This document shows, in pieces, positions 52,722 to 61,098 of a DNA stretch of 64,000 nt. This stretch comes from Prosthecobacter sp. (GTDB taxonomy: Bacteria > Verrucomicrobiota > Verrucomicrobiia > Verrucomicrobiales > Verrucomicrobiaceae). The position numbers and the translations under genes are program-made. The notes below the pieces were generated by a model that was given only the letters and a program-made list of their open reading frames with translations, did not search any database and had not been told where the DNA came from. The stretch is taken from positions 1 through 64,000 of the forward strand of contig JAIPJY010000014.1 in assembly GCA_021733925.1 (NCBI GenBank). Reading direction: 5' to 3'. Positions within the stretch are counted from its first letter, which is position 1. The number at the start of each line of letters is the position of its first letter.

Positions 52722-55169
52722 TCACGGCTTGCTCCCAATATACGTCAGCACATCCGCCACATCCTGCGTACTGAGCACGCTCTCCAGCCCCTCGGGCATG
52801 ATCGAGGTCGTCAGCGTTTTGAGTTCACGGATGTCGCTGCGCAGCACCACCATCTCCGCACCACCGGGCAGGCGAATCGTGATATTCCCCGGCGTTTCAG
52901 CGGCCAGCTGCCCCACGAGCACCGTTTGGTCTTTCTTTGTCACCTGCGTGGCTGCATTGCGTTGCTCCACCGCCCGATTCGGATCAAAGATCGCCTCAAT
53001 CAGTTGCTCGCGAGGTTTGGTCGCCACCGTCGTCAGATCGGGTCCCACCTCCACGCCCAGCTCACGCACCTTGTGGCATACCATGCACAGCTTTTGAAAT
53101 ACCGCGGCGCCACGCTTTGCATCGCCATTGAGTGGGGCCGCCTCGGTCACATATTTGGCCACGACCTTCTGCCGATTTGGATTCAGGTTCGTGATCACCG
53201 GCATCACCACTTTGCCAGGCGCTTTCTGCGGCACCTGCTTCAAGAGCATCTTCTCAAACTCATTGAGCACCGCATCTGACTCCGAGCCAGTGGCAGTCAG
53301 AGCTCCTGCCCGCACCTGAGGCGTCAGCGGCTTGATCAAGGCAAACACCTCATCTGCCGTCATGGCACCAAGCTGCATCAGCGTGAACGCAGCCTGCACC
53401 CGCACTGCGGGCGCAGCACCCAGCAGCAGCTTCAACTCAGCCACTGCAGACGTCTCATGCCGCTCAATCAACAGCCGCTGCGCCGTGTCACGCATCCAGC
53501 CGTTCGCCGATTCCATCGCCTCAGTCGGATCGTGTATTGTAGTCCCGCCTTTAGGCGGTCCGTTCTTGCTGATGCGGTAAATCCTCCCCCGATCCTCCCC
53601 GCCGCGCAGATCCAGCCCGCGCGCGATCTCCGCCGGAATCCACTCCGGGTGTTCCAGCACGAGCCGGTACATGTCCACCACATACAGCGCGCCATCCGGT
53701 CCTGTGCGTGCCATGCTGGGGCGGAACCAGTTGTCCTCACTCGCGATGAACTCGCTTTCCACATCACCCGGATGTCGTCTGCTGGTGATGCTGCCGCCAT
53801 CGTAGTTCAGCACCTCACGATGCACCAAATTGTTCGCAGGTTCGCAGATGAACATCACCTGTGCGCCATCAGTGCCGAACGTGCTGTCACGAAACGGCAT
53901 CGGCGAGCAGCCGGAGGTCAGCGTGTTGACCGCGCTTCCCTGATTGAATCGCCTCACAGGTGGGCTCGCTGGATACAGACGTTTCTCATCATTCATGTCG
54001 CTGCGGATGGATTTCACCACCACTTCAGGATGACGTTCGAGGTAACGAAACGGCAGCCAGTAGTGCCAGCCGATGGTGCTGTTGTTGTTGCCGAACCAGT
54101 TGCCGAAATCATCGCGCCACTTGCCATACTGGCTTCGCCCGCCTTCCAGCGCGAACTCGCCGTTGCGCGGATCAAAGCGGAAATCATTCGTGCCCAGAGC
54201 GATCTTCTTGCCCGTCTTCACGCAGGTGATGTCGCCGCCGCTGTCGCCATTCGCGCCGTAGAACCAGCCGTCCAGCCCCCAGCAGAAGCCGTTCACCAGA
54301 TGCTGAGGATTGCCGGCCGTGAAGCCGGTGAACCATGTCTCACGCTTGTCACACTTCCCATCGCCATCCGTGTCCTCCGCGTAGAAAATGTCCGGGATGT
54401 TGGCGATGAAGACGCCGTTCTTCCACGGCGCGAGACCGGTGGGATGCTTCAGGCCGTCGAGAAACAGGGTGGACTTGTCGTACACGCCGTCGCCATTCGT
54501 GTCTTCGAGGATTTTGACGCGTCCCGTTTGCAGCTCGGAAACCTTCTCCTGCCCCACGCTGCCGTCCTTCGTCTTTTCACCGGGGGCAAAGGGGTAGTCC
54601 CCCATTTCCACCACCCACATGCGGCCTTTCGCATCCCAGTCGATGAAGACAGGATCCTGCACCAGTGGTTCCGCCGCCACCAGCATCGCCTCAAAACCCG
54701 GCTTTACGTGCAGCGCTTTGAGTGAGTCCTGCGGTGACTTGGGTGCAGGCCCGGGGACTTTGAGCAGTTCGGCAAACGGCAGGCTAAGCTTTTCGCCGCT
54801 CCACATCGCGCCATCGTGAAAGGATACGCCGGTCTCGCTCCCATCCGCACGCACGATCAGCGGCAGGCTGTTCGCATCTCCAGCCTTGCCTTCGCGCATC
54901 ACCTGCGACCAGCCCTCATCCCATTGCAGCCCCTTCTTGGCTCGCTCCTTCGGCACAAAGAGAAACACCCCGTACTCGCGCGCATTGGACAGCACGATGT
55001 CCTCATGGCCGTCGCCGTTCAGATCGACAAACCGTACGCCGTTGTCGCGGCCTTGATCGTCCTGGAGCCTGGCGGCGTCAGGCAGTGCATATTCGCGCAG
55101 AGCCGTTGGCATTTCGACGGCATTTAAAAGGCTGCTGCAAATCAGGAGAGGCAGGATGAATCTAGACAT
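52722..55169 (-). CDS. PVC-type membrane-bound dehydrogenase with C-terminal haem domain
   Basis: An 815-residue exported protein. After the signal peptide comes a short VCBS/FG-GAP-like unit with a calcium-loop motif, DLNGDGHED. From about 120 the PVC dehydrogenase propeller domain begins (HVKPGFEAMLVAAEPL, DPVFIDWDAKGRMWVVE), with further DTNGDGVYD-type loops. A HEAT-like helical stretch precedes the c-type haem motif CMVCH at 695-699 and a C-terminal domain with VGPDLTTVA. Such proteins are a hallmark of Planctomycetota and Verrucomicrobiota. Its physiological substrate is unknown. It is divergent from the Cre operon. Confidence 0.88.
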   Translation of the reverse strand: MSRFILPLLICSSLLNAVEMPTALREYALPDAARLQDDQGRDNGVRFVDLNGDGHEDIVLSNAREYGVFLFVPKERAKKGLQWDEGWSQVMREGKAGDANSLPLIVRADGSETGVSFHDGAMWSGEKLSLPFAELLKVPGPAPKSPQDSLKALHVKPGFEAMLVAAEPLVQDPVFIDWDAKGRMWVVEMGDYPFAPGEKTKDGSVGQEKVSELQTGRVKILEDTNGDGVYDKSTLFLDGLKHPTGLAPWKNGVFIANIPDIFYAEDTDGDGKCDKRETWFTGFTAGNPQHLVNGFCWGLDGWFYGANGDSGGDITCVKTGKKIALGTNDFRFDPRNGEFALEGGRSQYGKWRDDFGNWFGNNNSTIGWHYWLPFRYLERHPEVVVKSIRSDMNDEKRLYPASPPVRRFNQGSAVNTLTSGCSPMPFRDSTFGTDGAQVMFICEPANNLVHREVLNYDGGSITSRRHPGDVESEFIASEDNWFRPSMARTGPDGALYVVDMYRLVLEHPEWIPAEIARGLDLRGGEDRGRIYRISKNGPPKGGTTIHDPTEAMESANGWMRDTAQRLLIERHETSAVAELKLLLGAAPAVRVQAAFTLMQLGAMTADEVFALIKPLTPQVRAGALTATGSESDAVLNEFEKMLLKQVPQKAPGKVVMPVITNLNPNRQKVVAKYVTEAAPLNGDAKRGAAVFQKLCMVCHKVRELGVEVGPDLTTVATKPREQLIEAIFDPNRAVEQRNAATQVTKKDQTVLVGQLAAETPGNITIRLPGGAEMVVLRSDIRELKTLTTSIMPEGLESVLSTQDVADVLTYIGSKP

Positions 55170-55245
55170 GACGGTGGAAGAAAGGAAACCAACGCCGATA
55201 CCGTGCCGCTTCCTTTGCGAGGAAGGTGAATTTGTGGAATGCGTT

Positions 55246-55283
55246 TTCACCCCCATTTCATTCCCACTTCATCAAGGTTTCAC
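55246..55283 (+). promoter_or_regulatory. Four-unit 11-bp direct repeat, candidate CreB binding array
   Basis: TTCAC (55246), TTCAT (55257), TTCAT (55268) and TTCAC (55279) are each followed by six variable bases, giving an exact 11-bp period. CreB of Escherichia coli binds TTCAC-N6-TTCAC, and OmpR/PhoB-class regulators generally use direct repeats at this spacing. The array ends 23 bp before the ATG at 55307 and lies 77-114 bp upstream of the divergent dehydrogenase gene. creB is encoded 2.5 kb downstream. Confidence 0.6.
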
Positions 55284-55306
55284 GCCTCTTTTGAGTTTGG
55301 GCGTCG

Positions 55307-56458
55307 ATGAAACCACTCCTCGTCCTATTCCTCTCTGCCGGTTCTCTCCTGGCTCAATCGCTCGAAGCCATCACCAGTGCCACGCTTGATGAGAGCGAAG
55401 TGCGCATCACCTACGGCGAGCTCAAACGCCTCGTCGCGGCCACGCTGCCAAAGGAGCTGCCTCCACCCGTGCCCAAACCAGCGCCACCCGTTCCGGCGGC
55501 GCTGCTCTCCGCGCAGTATCATCTCGATCCCGAGGCTTCAACCCTCACCGCCGAGATGCAGGTCGAGAACTTCGATGGCGACTGGCACACCGTCCCGCTC
55601 GCAGGCGCTGCCACAGGAGTGCTCGCTGTCGAGCCCAAAGACGCACGCCTCGTCGTCGTTGACGACCGCCTCTGCCTCATCACCGACAAAGCCGGCGCGC
55701 AGAATGTGAAGCTGACTTTTGCGCTGGCCACAGCAGGGCAGGGGACTACACTGGATCTCGCCGCATCCCCCATTGCTTCCCTCGCTGTCAAAGAACTCGC
55801 CGATGGTAAAGTCCTGCGACTGCAGCACGGAGCCACGTCTCAAACCCTCACGACTGCAGGACTCGCCGCGCTTCCGGCGCAGGGTGGCGAGGTTACATTC
55901 ACATTCGAAGATGCGCGCAAGGCCACGCAGTCGCCCATCGCCAGTCTTACGGACGACGCCATCGTCTCCATGGCGGCCTACACCACGCAGGTCGTGCGCG
56001 ATGGTTCCGCACTGACCGAAGGCACGATCACTGTGCGACACGATCACCCGGCCAGATTCATGCTACAGCTTCCTGAGTCCGCCAAGCTGCTCCAGTGCCA
56101 TGTGAATGGCGATCCCGTGCGGCCCACACTCGGTGAAGGCAATCGCTTGGAGATTCCCCTCGATGATCCTGCCACCGATGGCGCGGAGTCGGAAGTGAAG
56201 CTCTCCTTCACCGCTGTGCTTGCGCCATTACAGCTCGCCGAGGGCGAACTCGATCTTGCACTGCCTCAGACACCGCTCTTTGCCAAACAGATCGACTGGA
56301 ATGTGCAACTCCCCGCCACTTACGACCTCAGCTGCAGCGGCAACGCCGATCCGATCACCGACAAGACCACCGCGCCCGGTCTGCATCTTCGCAAATCTCT
56401 CTGTCGCGATCAACAACCCCAAGCTCGCATCACCTACCGCAAACGCGCCGCCAACTGA
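55307..56458 (+). CDS. Unknown secreted protein, first gene of the Cre-like operon
   Basis: A 383-residue protein with a signal peptide (about 1-16). Residues 20-50 are helical, followed by a Pro-rich linker (PPPVPKPAPPVP). The rest alternates short beta strands, with LDPEASTLTAEMQVENF and a similar later ITVRHDHPARFMLQL region, suggesting two or three immunoglobulin-like or beta-sandwich domains. I recognise no family. It stands 30 bp before the CreD-like gene and 24 bp after the candidate CreB array, so it is probably a regulated periplasmic or surface component. Confidence 0.7.
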   Translation: MKPLLVLFLSAGSLLAQSLEAITSATLDESEVRITYGELKRLVAATLPKELPPPVPKPAPPVPAALLSAQYHLDPEASTLTAEMQVENFDGDWHTVPLAGAATGVLAVEPKDARLVVVDDRLCLITDKAGAQNVKLTFALATAGQGTTLDLAASPIASLAVKELADGKVLRLQHGATSQTLTTAGLAALPAQGGEVTFTFEDARKATQSPIASLTDDAIVSMAAYTTQVVRDGSALTEGTITVRHDHPARFMLQLPESAKLLQCHVNGDPVRPTLGEGNRLEIPLDDPATDGAESEVKLSFTAVLAPLQLAEGELDLALPQTPLFAKQIDWNVQLPATYDLSCSGNADPITDKTTAPGLHLRKSLCRDQQPQARITYRKRAAN

Positions 56459-56488
56459 TCACCTCCATACCTCCCTCACACCATAGCC

Positions 56489-57673
56489 ATGAAACTCACT
56501 CATCTCACCACCATCGCCGTCATCTTCGTCTGCACCACCATCGCATGGTGGCTTCTCGGCGGCGTCATCACACAACGCACCGCCCATGTAGGCTATCAAA
56601 CAGGGGACGATGTCAGCGGACGCTGGGGACCGCCGCTGCTGCAAAAGCATCCGGTCGCACGCTTCACCTCATCCAATGGTTCCAGGGTGGTGCTCCAGCC
56701 GGCGAAGAGCGATGTCAAAGTTCAGCTCACCTATCAACCCGTCAAAATGGGGCTGCTCTGGCACCGCACCTACGGGGTGAAATTTGAGGGAGCCTACACC
56801 TTCACCAACACGACGGCCATCACGCAGACCCTCAGCATTGACTTTGACCTTCCCGCGGGAAACACCCTGCTCGACAAAATCCGTTTCAGCCTTGGCGAAG
56901 GTGCCTCCGCACGACGCTCCGTGGCCGCACCGCAGGAGGGTGTCATCACCGACACTGTGCAGCTGGCTCCAGGGGAAAGCATCCCGATCAACGTCAGCTA
57001 CGAATGCCGTGGCATGGACTTCTGGCGCTACGCCTTTGCCGATGCCAGCCGCATTCGTGACTTCACACTCTCCATGAACACGAACTTTACGGATGTGAAT
57101 TTCCCCATCAGTTCCCCCACCGATCGCATGCCAACTGAGAAAGGGATGGAGCTCATCTGGAAATACGAAGACGCTATTTCCGCGCCGGGCATCGGCATGG
57201 AAATGCCGCGTGAGCTCAATGCCGGACCCGTCGCCGCCCAGATCTCCTTCTATGCGCCACTTTCTCTGCTGCTGTTCTTTGTGGTGATCATCATCACCGC
57301 CACATCGCGCGGCGTGTCATTGCATCCGGTGAACTACTTCTTCCTCGCCGCCGGCTGCTTTGCCTTTCCCCTGCTGTTTTCCTACATGCTCGATGTGGTG
57401 CCCGTGCATCTCAGCTTTGTCATTGCCGCGGCCTCCTCGCTGCTGCTCGTGTGCGGTTACCTGCGCGCCGCTGCCGGAGAGTTTCTGTTCCGCGTCGCCG
57501 TCGTCGCGCAGACCGCCTACATGGTGCTCTTCAGCTACAGCTTTTTCTTCAAGGGCCTCACCGGCCTGACCCTCACCGTGGGCGGCATTGTCACACTCGG
57601 TGTCTTGATGGCGCTGACCGCTAAAGTGGACTGGAGCCAGAAACTCGGCGCTGTTTCACCCCGCCTTGCATGA
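56489..57673 (+). CDS. CreD-like inner membrane protein
   Basis: A 394-residue protein with an N-terminal membrane segment (about 5-27), a long exported beta-rich domain (about 30-255), and about six membrane segments in the last 140 residues. The C-terminal part aligns by eye with CreD of enterobacteria: LHPVNYFFLAAG corresponds to LHPMQYLLVGLS, and both end in a short xxDW segment after a final membrane helix. The N-terminal domain does not resemble CreD strongly. Its position directly before creB and creC supports the call. In Escherichia coli, CreD is the main CreB-regulated protein and is linked to envelope integrity and colicin E2 tolerance. Confidence 0.65.
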   Translation: MKLTHLTTIAVIFVCTTIAWWLLGGVITQRTAHVGYQTGDDVSGRWGPPLLQKHPVARFTSSNGSRVVLQPAKSDVKVQLTYQPVKMGLLWHRTYGVKFEGAYTFTNTTAITQTLSIDFDLPAGNTLLDKIRFSLGEGASARRSVAAPQEGVITDTVQLAPGESIPINVSYECRGMDFWRYAFADASRIRDFTLSMNTNFTDVNFPISSPTDRMPTEKGMELIWKYEDAISAPGIGMEMPRELNAGPVAAQISFYAPLSLLLFFVVIIITATSRGVSLHPVNYFFLAAGCFAFPLLFSYMLDVVPVHLSFVIAAASSLLLVCGYLRAAAGEFLFRVAVVAQTAYMVLFSYSFFFKGLTGLTLTVGGIVTLGVLMALTAKVDWSQKLGAVSPRLA

Positions 57674-57691
57674 TCGCATGATCGCATGATC
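57671..57691 (+). repeat. 8-bp tandem repeat at the CreD-like stop codon
   Basis: TGATCGCA is repeated twice and followed by TGATC. The stop codon of the CreD-like gene is its first TGA. Confidence 0.6.
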
Positions 57692-57692
57692 C

Positions 57693-57745
57693 GAACCGCT
57701 GATAGATTCTGAACAAGAGTCTTGTCAGCCTCTCATCAGCGGTTC
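57693..57745. promoter_or_regulatory. Inverted repeat between the CreD-like gene and creB
   Basis: GAACCGCTGAT at 57693-57703 and ATCAGCGGTTC at 57735-57745 are perfect inverted copies 31 bp apart. A smaller palindrome, ACAAG-AGT-CTTGT, lies at 57713-57725. It could be a partial terminator, an RNA processing stem or an operator controlling creBC separately. Confidence 0.5.
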
Positions 57746-57765
57746 AAACATTCACCCCAGCCGAA

Positions 57766-58464
57766 ATGCCTGCCAAAATACTCATCGTCGAAGACGAACC
57801 TTCCATCTGCGAAAACGTCGTCTATGCGCTCGAAGCTGACGGCTTTGCTGTGACGACCGCCGCCACAGGCCGTGCTGCCTTGGAGCAAATGAAGTCGCAG
57901 GATTTCAGCCTCGTCATTCTCGATGTCGGTCTGCCAGACATGACTGGCTTCGAGGTCTGCCAGACCATCCGCAAGACACAGTCCCTGCCGATCCTCTTCC
58001 TCACCGCACGCTCCAGCGAAGTGGACCGTGTGGTGGGACTGGAGATCGGCGGAGACGACTACGTGGTGAAGCCCTTCAGCCCGCGCGAGCTTGTGGCCCG
58101 CGTGCGCGCCATCCTGCGGCGCGTTTCACCCATTCCTCTGCCCGTAACTGGTTCTGACACCTCCATCCCGCTTGTCATTGATGAGACCCGCTGCCAGGTC
58201 ATCTACTTCGGCACCGCCCTGAATCTGTCGCGTTACGAATTCCGCATGCTCAAAGCCTTCGCCGCCCATCCGGGTCGCGTCTTCAGCCGCGAGCAGCTCA
58301 TGGATCATGCCTCCGAAGAGCCGGACGCCTCCATGGAGCGCACGGTGGACACTCATGTCAAAACCCTGCGCGCCCGCATGCGCGGGGTACGTGAGGGGCT
58401 CGATCCCATCGTCACGCATCGCGGCATGGGCTACTCACTGCTCGAAACCTGGCCCGACGCATGA
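57766..58464 (+). CDS. creB: CreB-like response regulator
   Basis: A 232-residue OmpR/PhoB-class regulator. The receiver domain has acidic residues VEDE, phosphoacceptor Asp53 in ILDVGLPD, and Lys102 in YVVKPFSPREL. The winged-helix DNA-binding domain has LSRYEFRMLKAF and RTVDTHVKTLRARMR, ending HRGMGYSL. Long stretches match enterobacterial CreB by eye, notably LFLTARSSEVDRVVGLEIG and the C-terminus. Its gene overlaps creC by four bases. Confidence 0.9.
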   Translation: MPAKILIVEDEPSICENVVYALEADGFAVTTAATGRAALEQMKSQDFSLVILDVGLPDMTGFEVCQTIRKTQSLPILFLTARSSEVDRVVGLEIGGDDYVVKPFSPRELVARVRAILRRVSPIPLPVTGSDTSIPLVIDETRCQVIYFGTALNLSRYEFRMLKAFAAHPGRVFSREQLMDHASEEPDASMERTVDTHVKTLRARMRGVREGLDPIVTHRGMGYSLLETWPDA

Positions 58465-59888
58465 GCCTCACCGCACGCTTTCTGCTGGGATTTGCGGTCG
58501 TGGCCACCGTGGGCCTGTTCGTGCTCTTCACCCAGCTTATCCACCGTGTCGAACGACAGTACTTTGAAGCTATTGAGGAGCCGATGGTCGATGTGGCCAA
58601 CATCCTTGCTGAAGTCATCGCCGCAGATGCGGACAACGGCGTGCTCAAACCGCAGGCCGTCGAGCAGGCGGTGCGTGCCGCCCAGCAGCGCCAGCTCAAT
58701 GCGCAGATCTACAACCTCAGCAAGACCCACGTGGACATGCAGGTCTATGTGACTGATGCGCAGGGTCGCGTGCTGTTTGACTCCGCCGGCATTGAGCAGC
58801 CTGGCACAATCTCCAATCATCGCGATGTGAACCTCACCCTCATGGGGGAATACGGTGCGCGATCCTCCCGCAGCAGCGAATACGATCCGCTTTCCATCGT
58901 GATGTATGTCGGTGCCCCCATCCAGCATGAGGGAAGGACCATCGGCATGCTCAGCGTCGCCAAGCCACAGCGCGGTGTGCTGGGTTTTGTCTGGGAGACG
59001 GAGCGCTGGCTGAAGTGGTCCATCATCACCACGGTCATGCTCATGCTGCTGGGCATCTATCTCGCGGCCCGCTGGGCCACACGTCCGCTGGAGGTGCTCA
59101 CCCAGCATGCCCTCGCTGTGAGCCGTGGCGAGCGCTCCACCTCGCCGCGCATGCCGGGGCATCAGATGAAAACCCTCGCCAAAGCCCTCGAAGACATGCG
59201 GGATGCACTCGAAGGCCGCGAATACGTCGAGCATTACGTGCAGAGCCTCACGCATGAATTGAAGAGCCCCGTCGCCGCGATCCTCGGTGCCGGTGAGATC
59301 CTGCAGGGCGATGTGCCGGAACCCAAGCGCACACGCTTTCTGCAAAACATCCGCAGCGAAGCTGGCCGGCTGCGCGATCTGCTCGAACGCCTGCTGCACC
59401 TCGCGGCCATTGAAAAGCAGAAGAAGCTTGAAACCAACGAGACTGTCGATCTCACGAGTGTACTGGACCGTTCTTGGGATCATCTGGCGCTCGTCGCTCT
59501 GGGCAAAGAGGTGAGGATTGAGCGTGACATAGTGCCAGGCCTCACCACGCAGGGGGACCCTTGGCTGCTCGAACTCGCCGTGGGCAACTTGCTGCAGAAT
59601 GCCATCGACTTCGCACCGAAGGGCAGTGTCATCACTGTTCGCGGCTATCAATTTGATGCGCAGGTTGTGCTTGAGATCGAAGATTCTGGTCCCGGCATTC
59701 CTGATTACGCCAGCACCCGCGTCTTTGAGCGCTTTTATTCTCTGCCGCGTCCTGACAGCGGCAAGAAGAGCACGGGGCTCGGACTCTGCTTCGTTAAAGA
59801 AGTCGCACAACTGCACGGCGGCAGCGTGGAACTGACAAATCGTGAAGGCGTGGCCGGAGCCAAGGCCATGTTGATTCTCCCTGCGTGA
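58461..59888 (+). CDS. creC: CreC-like sensor histidine kinase
   Basis: A 475-residue kinase with membrane segments at about 8-27 and 184-203, enclosing a periplasmic sensor domain. The sensor contains VYVTDAQGRVLFDSAG and EYGARSS, nearly as in enterobacterial CreC. A HAMP-like linker precedes the phosphorylated His265 in SLTHELKSP. ATP-binding motifs are NLLQNAIDFAP, EDSGPGIPD, and FERFYSLPRPDSG followed by TGLGL. CreC responds to carbon and energy status in Escherichia coli; the signal here is unknown. It is coupled to creB by an ATGA overlap. Confidence 0.9.
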   Translation: MSLTARFLLGFAVVATVGLFVLFTQLIHRVERQYFEAIEEPMVDVANILAEVIAADADNGVLKPQAVEQAVRAAQQRQLNAQIYNLSKTHVDMQVYVTDAQGRVLFDSAGIEQPGTISNHRDVNLTLMGEYGARSSRSSEYDPLSIVMYVGAPIQHEGRTIGMLSVAKPQRGVLGFVWETERWLKWSIITTVMLMLLGIYLAARWATRPLEVLTQHALAVSRGERSTSPRMPGHQMKTLAKALEDMRDALEGREYVEHYVQSLTHELKSPVAAILGAGEILQGDVPEPKRTRFLQNIRSEAGRLRDLLERLLHLAAIEKQKKLETNETVDLTSVLDRSWDHLALVALGKEVRIERDIVPGLTTQGDPWLLELAVGNLLQNAIDFAPKGSVITVRGYQFDAQVVLEIEDSGPGIPDYASTRVFERFYSLPRPDSGKKSTGLGLCFVKEVAQLHGGSVELTNREGVAGAKAMLILPA

Positions 59889-59900
59889 GGGCGGGCAAGT

Positions 59901-59928
59901 TTGACAACTTGAGGTGGCTTTCTAGTCT
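59901..59928 (+). promoter_or_regulatory. Promoter of the CysJ-like gene, probably leaderless
   Basis: TTGACA at 59901-59906 (a perfect -35) and TAGTCT at 59923-59928 are 16 bp apart. Transcription would start 6-7 bases later, at about the A of the ATG at 59935. Confidence 0.5.
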
Positions 59929-59934
59929 CCAACC

Positions 59935-61098
59935 ATGAGTACTCCTGAAGCCGGAAAGCCCGTTTACAATGTCAAGAACCCCTGCATCGCCAAGGTGAAG
60001 CGGATGTTTGACCTCTCCGGCCCCGATGCGCCCAAGCACACCGCGCATTATGAGATCGACCTCGCGGGTTCCGGTTTGGAGTACACCCCCGGCGACTCGC
60101 TGGCGGTGCAGCCCACGAATGATCCCACACTCGTGGACGACACCCTCGCCGCGCTCGGATTCTCCGGCACCGAAATCGTCAAGCATCCCAAAACCGCCGC
60201 AGAGGTGCCCATTCGCCAGGCCTTGATCGAAGGCACCCTCATCACCGAGATCGACAACAAGCTCATCAAGGCCATCATCGAAAAAACCGAAGGCGACACG
60301 TTGCTGGCCGACCTCAGCGTGCCTGAGAAAAAAGACGCGCTGAAAGAGTATCTGTGGGGCCGATTTGTGGTGGACCTTCTGCTTGAAAATCCCATCGCGA
60401 AATTCACGCCCGAGGAGTTCATGCTCACTCAGAAGAAGCTGAACATCCGCCTCTACTCCATCAGCAGCAGCCAGAAGGCACATCCAACGGAGGTGCACCT
60501 CACCGTCGCAACCGTGCGCTACACCAGCCATAACCGCGCACGTGGTGGTGTCGCCTCCACCTTCCTCGCTGAACGTGTCACACCCAATGAGACGCTCATT
60601 CCCTGCTTTGTGAATCACGGGAAAGGCTTTCGCCTCCCCGAGCCGCATGAGCAGACCCCCATCATCATGTGCGGCCCCGGCACCGGCATCGCTCCGTTTC
60701 GTGCCTTCCTCGAAGAACGCAAGGCCACCAGCGCCCAGGGCAAAGCCTGGCTCTTCTTCGGTGAAGTCAGCGCCAAGTCCTGCTTCTTCTACAAGGAGGA
60801 GTTTGAAGCTTACCTCGACGACGGCACGCTGACCAAGTTCAGCACCGCCTGGAGCCGCGATCAGGTCGAAAAAATCTACGTGCAGCACAAGATGCTCGAA
60901 AACAGCGCCGAGCTCTGGGCCTGGCTCGAACAAGGTGCCATCTTCTACGTCTGCGGCGATGCAGCCCGCATGGCGAGCGATGTGGACAAGGCACTGCATA
61001 CGATCATTGAGCAGGAAGGCCGCAAAACGGCAGAGGAAGCCGCCGCCTATGTGCATGCGATGAAGGAAGCCAAACGCTACCGTCGCGACGTGTATTAA
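59935..61098 (+). CDS. CysJ-like FAD/NADPH reductase lacking a flavodoxin domain
   Basis: A 387-residue protein matching the C-terminal two thirds of sulfite reductase alpha subunit CysJ. It has the connecting FAD domain (YTPGDSLAVQP, IRLYSISSS, RGGVASTFLAE), the NADP-binding domain (PIIMCGPGTGIAPFRAFLEER, FYVCGDAARMASDV) and the closing RYRRDVY residues typical of this group. The FMN-binding flavodoxin domain of CysJ is absent. Electrons must therefore pass from FAD to a separate flavodoxin or ferredoxin, or directly to a reductase. No hemoprotein subunit lies nearby. Confidence 0.85.
   Translation: MSTPEAGKPVYNVKNPCIAKVKRMFDLSGPDAPKHTAHYEIDLAGSGLEYTPGDSLAVQPTNDPTLVDDTLAALGFSGTEIVKHPKTAAEVPIRQALIEGTLITEIDNKLIKAIIEKTEGDTLLADLSVPEKKDALKEYLWGRFVVDLLLENPIAKFTPEEFMLTQKKLNIRLYSISSSQKAHPTEVHLTVATVRYTSHNRARGGVASTFLAERVTPNETLIPCFVNHGKGFRLPEPHEQTPIIMCGPGTGIAPFRAFLEERKATSAQGKAWLFFGEVSAKSCFFYKEEFEAYLDDGTLTKFSTAWSRDQVEKIYVQHKMLENSAELWAWLEQGAIFYVCGDAARMASDVDKALHTIIEQEGRKTAEEAAAYVHAMKEAKRYRRDVY

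What the first reader, a model, noticed from the sequence alone, without database searches (positions are those of the whole stretch)
55246..55283. Four TTCA(C/T) elements at an exact 11-bp period near a creBC operon
The elements start at 55246, 55257, 55268 and 55279. CreB in Escherichia coli binds TTCAC-N6-TTCAC, and a CreB orthologue is encoded downstream. Four units could hold two dimers. The array is close to the start of an unknown secreted gene and upstream of a divergent haem dehydrogenase, so either or both could be targets. This would place a Cre regulon outside Gammaproteobacteria.
Basis: partly seen in the sequence, partly recalled or inferred. Interest (0 to 1): 0.75.

Follow-up and report, generated by a model that had tools for sequence, protein, structure and literature searches.

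The report
CreB-type promoter array in Verrucomicrobiota
Four evenly spaced copies of a short DNA word sit in front of a four-gene operon and recur there in many relatives in the phylum Verrucomicrobiota, where they are most likely the landing site of CreB, a regulator studied so far in Proteobacteria.

Summary
In detail: TTCAY starts at 55246, 55257, 55268 and 55279 with an exact 11-bp period, the only perfect four-unit array in this 7.3-Mb Prosthecobacter-like genome. Of 80 named Verrucomicrobiota loci picked only by the CreD-like protein, 75 were usable and 61 carry a four-unit array scoring >=18/20 upstream; reversed motif, other strand and 1500 shuffles gave 0. TTCA is kept while spacers vary; the array ends 20-25 bp before a start codon in 65 of 69, with a -10-like xAxxxT at +11..+16. 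This predicts leaderless or nearly leaderless mRNA, the array standing in for a -35. Arrays track CreC: 63 of 66 CreC+ genomes against 22 of 76 without. In another family of the class the array often lies between creC and creD, as in E. coli. The target is the operon X-creD-like-creB-creC; the divergent haem gene is not supported (9 of 80 loci). Best reading: a CreB activator site, an expanded cre/blr tag. Binding, direction of control and transcript start are untested, and a second regulator has a similar array.

The parts
55246..55283 (+). Array of four TTCAY half-sites, period 11 bp (TTCAC, TTCAT, TTCAT, TTCAC): predicted CreB binding site
   Evidence: conserved in relatives
55293..55298 (+). 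GAGTTT, weak -10-like element 9 bp after the last half-site (inferred from its place and from the xAxxxT columns of relatives)
   Evidence: no consensus sigma-70 promoter found in 55100-60000
55305..55307 (+). Predicted transcript start, at or within 2 nt of the ATG of X (inferred, not mapped)
   Evidence: spacing
55307..56458 (+). Gene X: predicted secreted protein, two all-beta domains (64-202, 218-379), no Pfam or NCBIfam family at E 0.01; conserved neighbour of the CreD-like gene
56489..57673 (+). CreD-like inner membrane protein (over Pfam's CreD cut-off through its C-terminal membrane part only; far under the NCBIfam CreD cut-off)
57766..58464 (+). creB: OmpR/PhoB-family response regulator, over the NCBIfam CreB cut-off; recognition-helix region like that of E. 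coli CreB
58461..59888 (+). creC: sensor histidine kinase, over the NCBIfam CreC cut-off; its start overlaps the end of creB

Best explanation
The array is the operator-promoter of the operon X-creD-like-creB-creC. Phosphorylated CreB, a winged-helix OmpR/PhoB-type regulator, binds the four head-to-tail TTCAY half-sites on one face of the helix (about one turn apart), probably as two dimers side by side, and holds RNA polymerase at a weak -10 element 9-10 bp downstream; the array stands where a -35 box would be (PhoB-type activation). Transcription starts at or next to the ATG of X, giving a leaderless or nearly leaderless mRNA. As creB and creC are the last genes of the operon, CreB controls its own synthesis. 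Shown: the array, its conservation, its spacing and its tie to CreC. Inferred: CreB as the binder, activation rather than repression, the number of dimers, one transcript for all four genes, the transcript start.
For: CreB/CreC identity. 80 named loci picked by the CreD-like protein: score >=18/20 in 61 of 75 usable (59 of 68 with full upstream), >=16 in 69 of 75 (67 of 68); reversed motif 0 at >=18 and 3 at >=16, other strand 0 and 1, 1500 shuffles 0 and 11. TTCA columns keep the commonest base in 93% on average against 48% in spacers, 43 deduplicated loci. Start codon of a frame of >=200 aa 20-25 bp after the array in 65 of 69; in the first set 33 of 35. A at +12 in 35 and T at +16 in 36 of 43. 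Three-unit arrays in 63 of 66 CreC+ and 22 of 76 CreC- genomes, reversed pattern 2 and 8 hits. With N20-25-ATG 55 of 66 and 8 of 76 (counted); shifted spacing 14 of 142 genomes. Phylum sample: 23 of 48 CreC+ and 4 of 240 others. Array at +22 in front of creB itself in L123 and L248. In 8 of 11 loci with an array downstream of creC the gene at the array is a Pfam CreD. E. coli K-12 has TTCACCGTCACTTCAC, later CATAGT, in its creC-creD gap. Published: the tag TTCAC-N6-TTCAC matters for control by CreB/BlrA (PMC4689548, PMC3660660; passages).
Against: No binding or transcript data. Co-occurrence counts are not corrected for shared descent, and the two genome samples overlap. 25 of 48 CreC+ genomes in the phylum sample lack the strict array+ATG pattern. 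Another two-component system (regulator nearest to TIGR01387, heavy-metal type) has a TTCAT array of the same period right after its kinase gene, in CreC- genomes too, so the site type alone does not name the regulator. In the wider, hand-picked set only 14 of 36 arrays have ATG at 20-25.
Confidence: 0.8

Rival explanations
1. Another OmpR/PhoB-family regulator (PhoB, or the heavy-metal-type regulator found here) binds the array, not CreB.
For: PhoB also binds 11-bp direct repeats (PMC3978041, passage). A second two-component system in these bacteria has its own 11-bp TTCAT array about 23-26 bp before a start codon.
Against: Arrays track CreC and sit in front of creB or between creC and creD in several genomes. 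The core is TTCA, as in the published cre tag, not the TGTCA of the Pho box (recalled); a TGTCAY-N5-TGTCAY search of the own genome gave one hit. The window CreB shares RTVDTHxKTLRA with E. coli CreB; the other regulator has NVIDVTLYHLREKV there.
Confidence: 0.12
2. CreB binds here as a repressor or autorepressor rather than as an activator.
For: In Stenotrophomonas maltophilia the creD transcript rises 3.83-fold when creBC is inactivated (PMC4689548, passage). The array is very close to the predicted start.
Against: No consensus sigma-70 promoter in the region, and the -10-like columns are weak, as at promoters that need an activator. In E. coli and P. aeruginosa activated CreBC raises creD (PMC4689548, passage).
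Confidence: 0.15
3. The array serves the divergent haem dehydrogenase (start 55169, minus strand), alone or together with the operon.
For: The array lies in the shared intergenic stretch. A few arrays elsewhere lie 41-53 bp before a gene on the other strand (C64 in the own genome, L105, L137, L139), so a divergent target is not impossible in principle.
Against: A homologue was found in 9 of 80 loci, close relatives by CreD identity (86% or more in L152-L161 set apart from L161 at 85%), while the array stays without it; half-sites are oriented to the operon and end 20-25 bp before its start in 65 of 69.
Confidence: 0.05
4. The array is a tandem repeat made by slippage, without function.
For: Some relatives do hold perfect 11-bp repeats (G082 C59, G121 C275).
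Against: Spacers differ within and between loci while the core is kept; slippage would copy spacers as well. Position and orientation are kept.
Confidence: 0.01

Closest known systems
cre/blr tag of CreB (E. coli) and BlrA (Aeromonas)
   Same: TTCAC core, 11-bp period, oriented towards creD, regulator CreB with CreC; E. coli K-12 has two units in phase and a -10-like CATAGT before creD
   Different: Three to six units (one mismatch a unit allowed) instead of two, TTCAT allowed, 20-25 bp to the start codon (leaderless prediction), gene order array-X-creD-creB-creC in the window, X without known family, another phylum
Pho box of PhoB
   Same: Direct repeats of 11 bp read by an OmpR/PhoB-type regulator (PMC3978041, passage); placed instead of a -35 (recalled)
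   Different: Core TTCA instead of TGTCA (recalled); linked to CreBC, not PhoBR
Four-repeat PhoP sites of Bacillus subtilis (recalled, not looked up)
   Same: Four half-sites about one turn apart for two dimers
   Different: Other core, other regulator, other phylum

Membership tests
CreBC two-component system | Response regulator over the NCBIfam CreB equivalog cut-off | tested here: met
   NF008296 315.1 vs 273 bits
CreBC two-component system | Sensor kinase over the NCBIfam CreC equivalog cut-off | tested here: met
   NF008312 530.5 vs 356 bits
CreBC two-component system | A creD gene next to creBC | tested here: met
   CreD-like gene directly upstream of creB; Pfam CreD 37.9 vs 23 bits, residues 254-383
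CreD family | NCBIfam CreD equivalog cut-off (275 bits) | tested here: not met
   30.9 bits: filed as CreD-like, not as CreD
cre/blr tag | Exact TTCAC-N6-TTCAC | tested here: not met
   In the window the fifth bases are C,T,T,C; only TTCAY-N6-TTCAY is met. Exact pairs occur in relatives, e.g. L038, L040, L043
cre/blr tag | Direct repeat of period 11 upstream of a creD-containing operon, on the coding strand | tested here: met
   (with a CreD-like gene in the window)
cre/blr tag | Bound by CreB and needed for its control | not testable with these tools
   Only co-occurrence and conservation are available
Pho box (PhoB) | TGTCA core repeats (consensus recalled) | tested here: not met
   Second base T, not G, in all four units and in 37-41 of 43 relatives at each unit

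The most novel reading that the evidence does not exclude
Verrucomicrobiota hold an old Cre regulon of leaderless genes: CreB arrays of three to six half-sites fuse operator, -35 substitute and translation start into one cassette of nearly fixed length (array, N10, xAxxxT, about 6 nt, ATG), used for creD or X-creD, for creB itself, for VIT/VWA secreted proteins and for small membrane proteins, and copied in front of creB where extra DNA separates it from creD.
Probability: 0.5. Interest if true: 0.65.

Novelty: new variant of a known kind. Interest (0 to 1): 0.52.

Why it matters
CreBC has been studied in E. coli, Aeromonas, Pseudomonas and Stenotrophomonas (abstract of PMC5402928 in a listing), and what it senses is not settled. 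A conserved, easily scanned array in a second phylum gives a comparative handle on what CreB controls (creD, creB, VIT/VWA and small membrane proteins, so probably the envelope), and a test case for activator-dependent leaderless transcription.

Full report
Observation. The pair pattern TTCAY-N6-TTCAY occurs 5 times in the window (3 in the array) against a shuffle mean of 0.45, largest 3. In the 7.3-Mb genome the exact three-unit pattern has 3 hits, two of them this array; the four-unit pattern with up to 3 mismatches has 8 rows, and no other has fewer than 3 mismatches. The window has no exact TTCAC-N6-TTCAC pair.

Surroundings. Downstream lie X (55307-56458, no Pfam or NCBIfam family at E 0.01), a CreD-like gene (Pfam CreD 37.9 bits, cut-off 23, residues 254-383 only; NCBIfam CreD 30.9, cut-off 275), creB (315.1, cut-off 273) and creC (530.5, cut-off 356). 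A PVC-type haem-binding protein gene runs the other way from 55169. The nearest named relatives are titled Verrucomicrobiaceae and Prosthecobacter.

Conservation. The CreD-like protein is in 52 of 142 genomes (the own one included). In 40 oriented loci from genus to order an array scoring at least 18 of 20 was found in 35, and in 33 of these a start codon lies 20-25 bp behind it; the exceptions are L025 (the fit took a register one unit further downstream) and L038 (first ATG at 43). An independent set of 80 named Verrucomicrobiota loci was chosen by the CreD-like protein alone (best 80 of 258). Five have under 1 kb upstream and were left out. Of the 75, a four-unit score of at least 18 is reached in 61 (59 of the 68 with full upstream) and of at least 16 in 69 (67 of 68). 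Controls: reversed motif 0 and 3, other strand 0 and 1, 1500 dinucleotide shuffles 0 and 11. Of the six under 16, five have short upstream sequence (L178, L200, L202, L206, L210) and one is full (L182). The 69 hold four exact units in 23, three in 37, two in 7, one in 2; 65 of 69 have a start of a frame of at least 200 aa at offset 20-25, none only at 30-35. In 43 deduplicated loci the TTCA columns average 93% for the commonest base, spacers 48%. By record title the loci with arrays include Verrucomicrobiaceae, Akkermansiaceae, Puniceicoccaceae, Opitutales, Spartobacteria and Chthoniobacterales.

Promoter. Downstream of the last half-site the strongest columns are A at +12 (35 of 43) and T at +16 (36 of 43); in an earlier, overlapping set of 31 arrays, kept out of 53 because they had ATG at 20-27, 24 and 24. 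Read as a -10 element, with the T as -7, +1 falls on the A of an ATG at offset 22. In the window's genus the element (GAGTTT, GAGCAT, GAACAT) mostly lies one base earlier and the ATG at 23, so a leader of 0-2 nt. No consensus sigma-70 promoter is found in 55100-60000. The array thus covers the place of a -35. E. coli K-12 shows TTCACCGTCACTTCAC, an out-of-phase TTCAA, ten bases and CATAGT in the creC-creD gap; calling CATAGT a -10 is inference.

Link to CreBC. CreC over the cut-off is in 66 of 142 genomes. Three-unit arrays: 63 of 66 CreC+, 22 of 76 CreC- (252 and 42 hits; reversed pattern 2 and 8 hits; Fisher 1.7e-17). With N20-25-ATG behind: 55 of 66 and 8 of 76 (counted by hand; Fisher); with the spacing moved to 37-42: 14 of 142 genomes. 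In a sample of 288 genomes of the phylum, partly the same genomes, 48 hold a CreC match at E <= 1e-90 (47 over the cut-off) and the strict pattern is in 23 of these and in 4 of the other 240. Shared descent is not corrected for. 25 of the 48 lack the strict pattern.

Where else arrays sit. In front of creB itself at +22: L123, L248. In three genomes of the window's genus (L005, L006, L011) extra DNA, in L006 and L011 with repeat-like stretches, separates creD from creB, and a second four-unit array lies 118-127 bp before creB, so not at the usual distance; in L005 and L006 an ATG of a short frame stands at +23. Eleven loci with an array downstream of creC were fetched (L236-L246; ten from one other family of the class, L239 from further off; in L243 the array is about 730 bp behind creC): eight have a Pfam CreD gene at the array, one a VIT/VWA protein (L237), one a protein without family (L239), and in one no frame was found (L244). 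L247, with creC several kb away, has one array at a VIT/VWA gene and one at a CreD gene. Four of these nine CreD genes are short (228-242 aa). VIT/VWA proteins follow arrays in eight loci: L106, L109, L120, L133, L141, L237, L247, L249; in L141 and by its ATG in L106 the start is further off (+49). Single cases are VanZ-like (L104), DUF817 (L110), DUF4153 (L114), DUF1361 (L115), NUDIX (L138). In the 36 arrays of this wider set, picked by hand from the hit lists, 14 have ATG at 20-25 and the next highest bins 6. The one other three-unit hit of the own genome lies 41 bp before a DUF1361 gene (Pfam 151 bits), turned the other way.

Which regulator. The window CreB is 51% identical to E. coli CreB and keeps RTVDTHxKTLRA in the recognition-helix region (the role of that helix is established knowledge of the OmpR/PhoB family). 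A second two-component system has a TTCAT array of the same period about 23-26 bp before a start; its regulator is nearest to TIGR01387, heavy-metal type (272-281 bits, cut-off 279), and has a different helix. The site type is thus shared by more than one regulator, which keeps CreB at 0.8 and not higher.

Literature. Cre/blr tag and CreBC control: PMC4689548 and PMC3660660 (passages). A search for CreBC with Verrucomicrobi found two papers, in which the CreBC passages do not concern Verrucomicrobiota. Other listings (20 of 47, 15 of 15, 6 of 454) showed no title on a Cre regulon in this phylum. The library is open-access only, so this means not found in these searches.

Noticed in passing
L148, L149, L150, L151, L232, L233, L234: A second TTCAT array of period 11 (cTTTTCATCTGCCTTTCATCTTCGTTTCAT and variants) after the kinase gene of a heavy-metal-type two-component system, again about 23-26 bp before a start codon, in CreC+ and CreC- genomes.
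   Followed up: partly
L106, L109, L120, L133, L141, L237, L247, L249: VIT/VWA proteins follow CreB-type arrays in eight genomes; the three tested match TIGR03788 at 390-421 bits (cut-off 552), and L109, L120 and L133 show PEP-CTERM-like tails.
   Followed up: partly
L001:1500-2240 (own genome, contig C64): The other three-unit array of the own genome lies 41 bp before a DUF1361 membrane protein gene but points away from it; in L115 a four-unit array lies 40 bp before a DUF1361 gene, pointing towards it.
   Followed up: partly
L005, L006, L011 (creD-creB gap): Extra DNA between creD and creB, each with a further copy of the four-unit array 118-127 bp before creB.
   Followed up: partly
L105, L137, L139: Arrays 50-53 bp before a gene on the other strand for one family of membrane proteins without Pfam family; in L107 a similar protein starts 69 bp behind an array in the usual direction.
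   Followed up: no
G082:C59:42417-42531 and G121:C275:77-158: Perfect 11-bp tandem repeats TTCACGGTGGC and TTCACCAGCGT, many copies, of unknown meaning.
   Followed up: no
G075, G081, G084, G087, G093, G107, G126, G137 (genus g12): Nearly identical TTCACTTCACTTTCATCCGTAATTCAT shared by genomes without CreC; probably unrelated.
   Followed up: no
window 57671-57765: The creD-creB gap holds an inverted repeat (CCGCTGAT ... ATCAGCGG, not folded) and a GCATGATC repeat.
   Followed up: no
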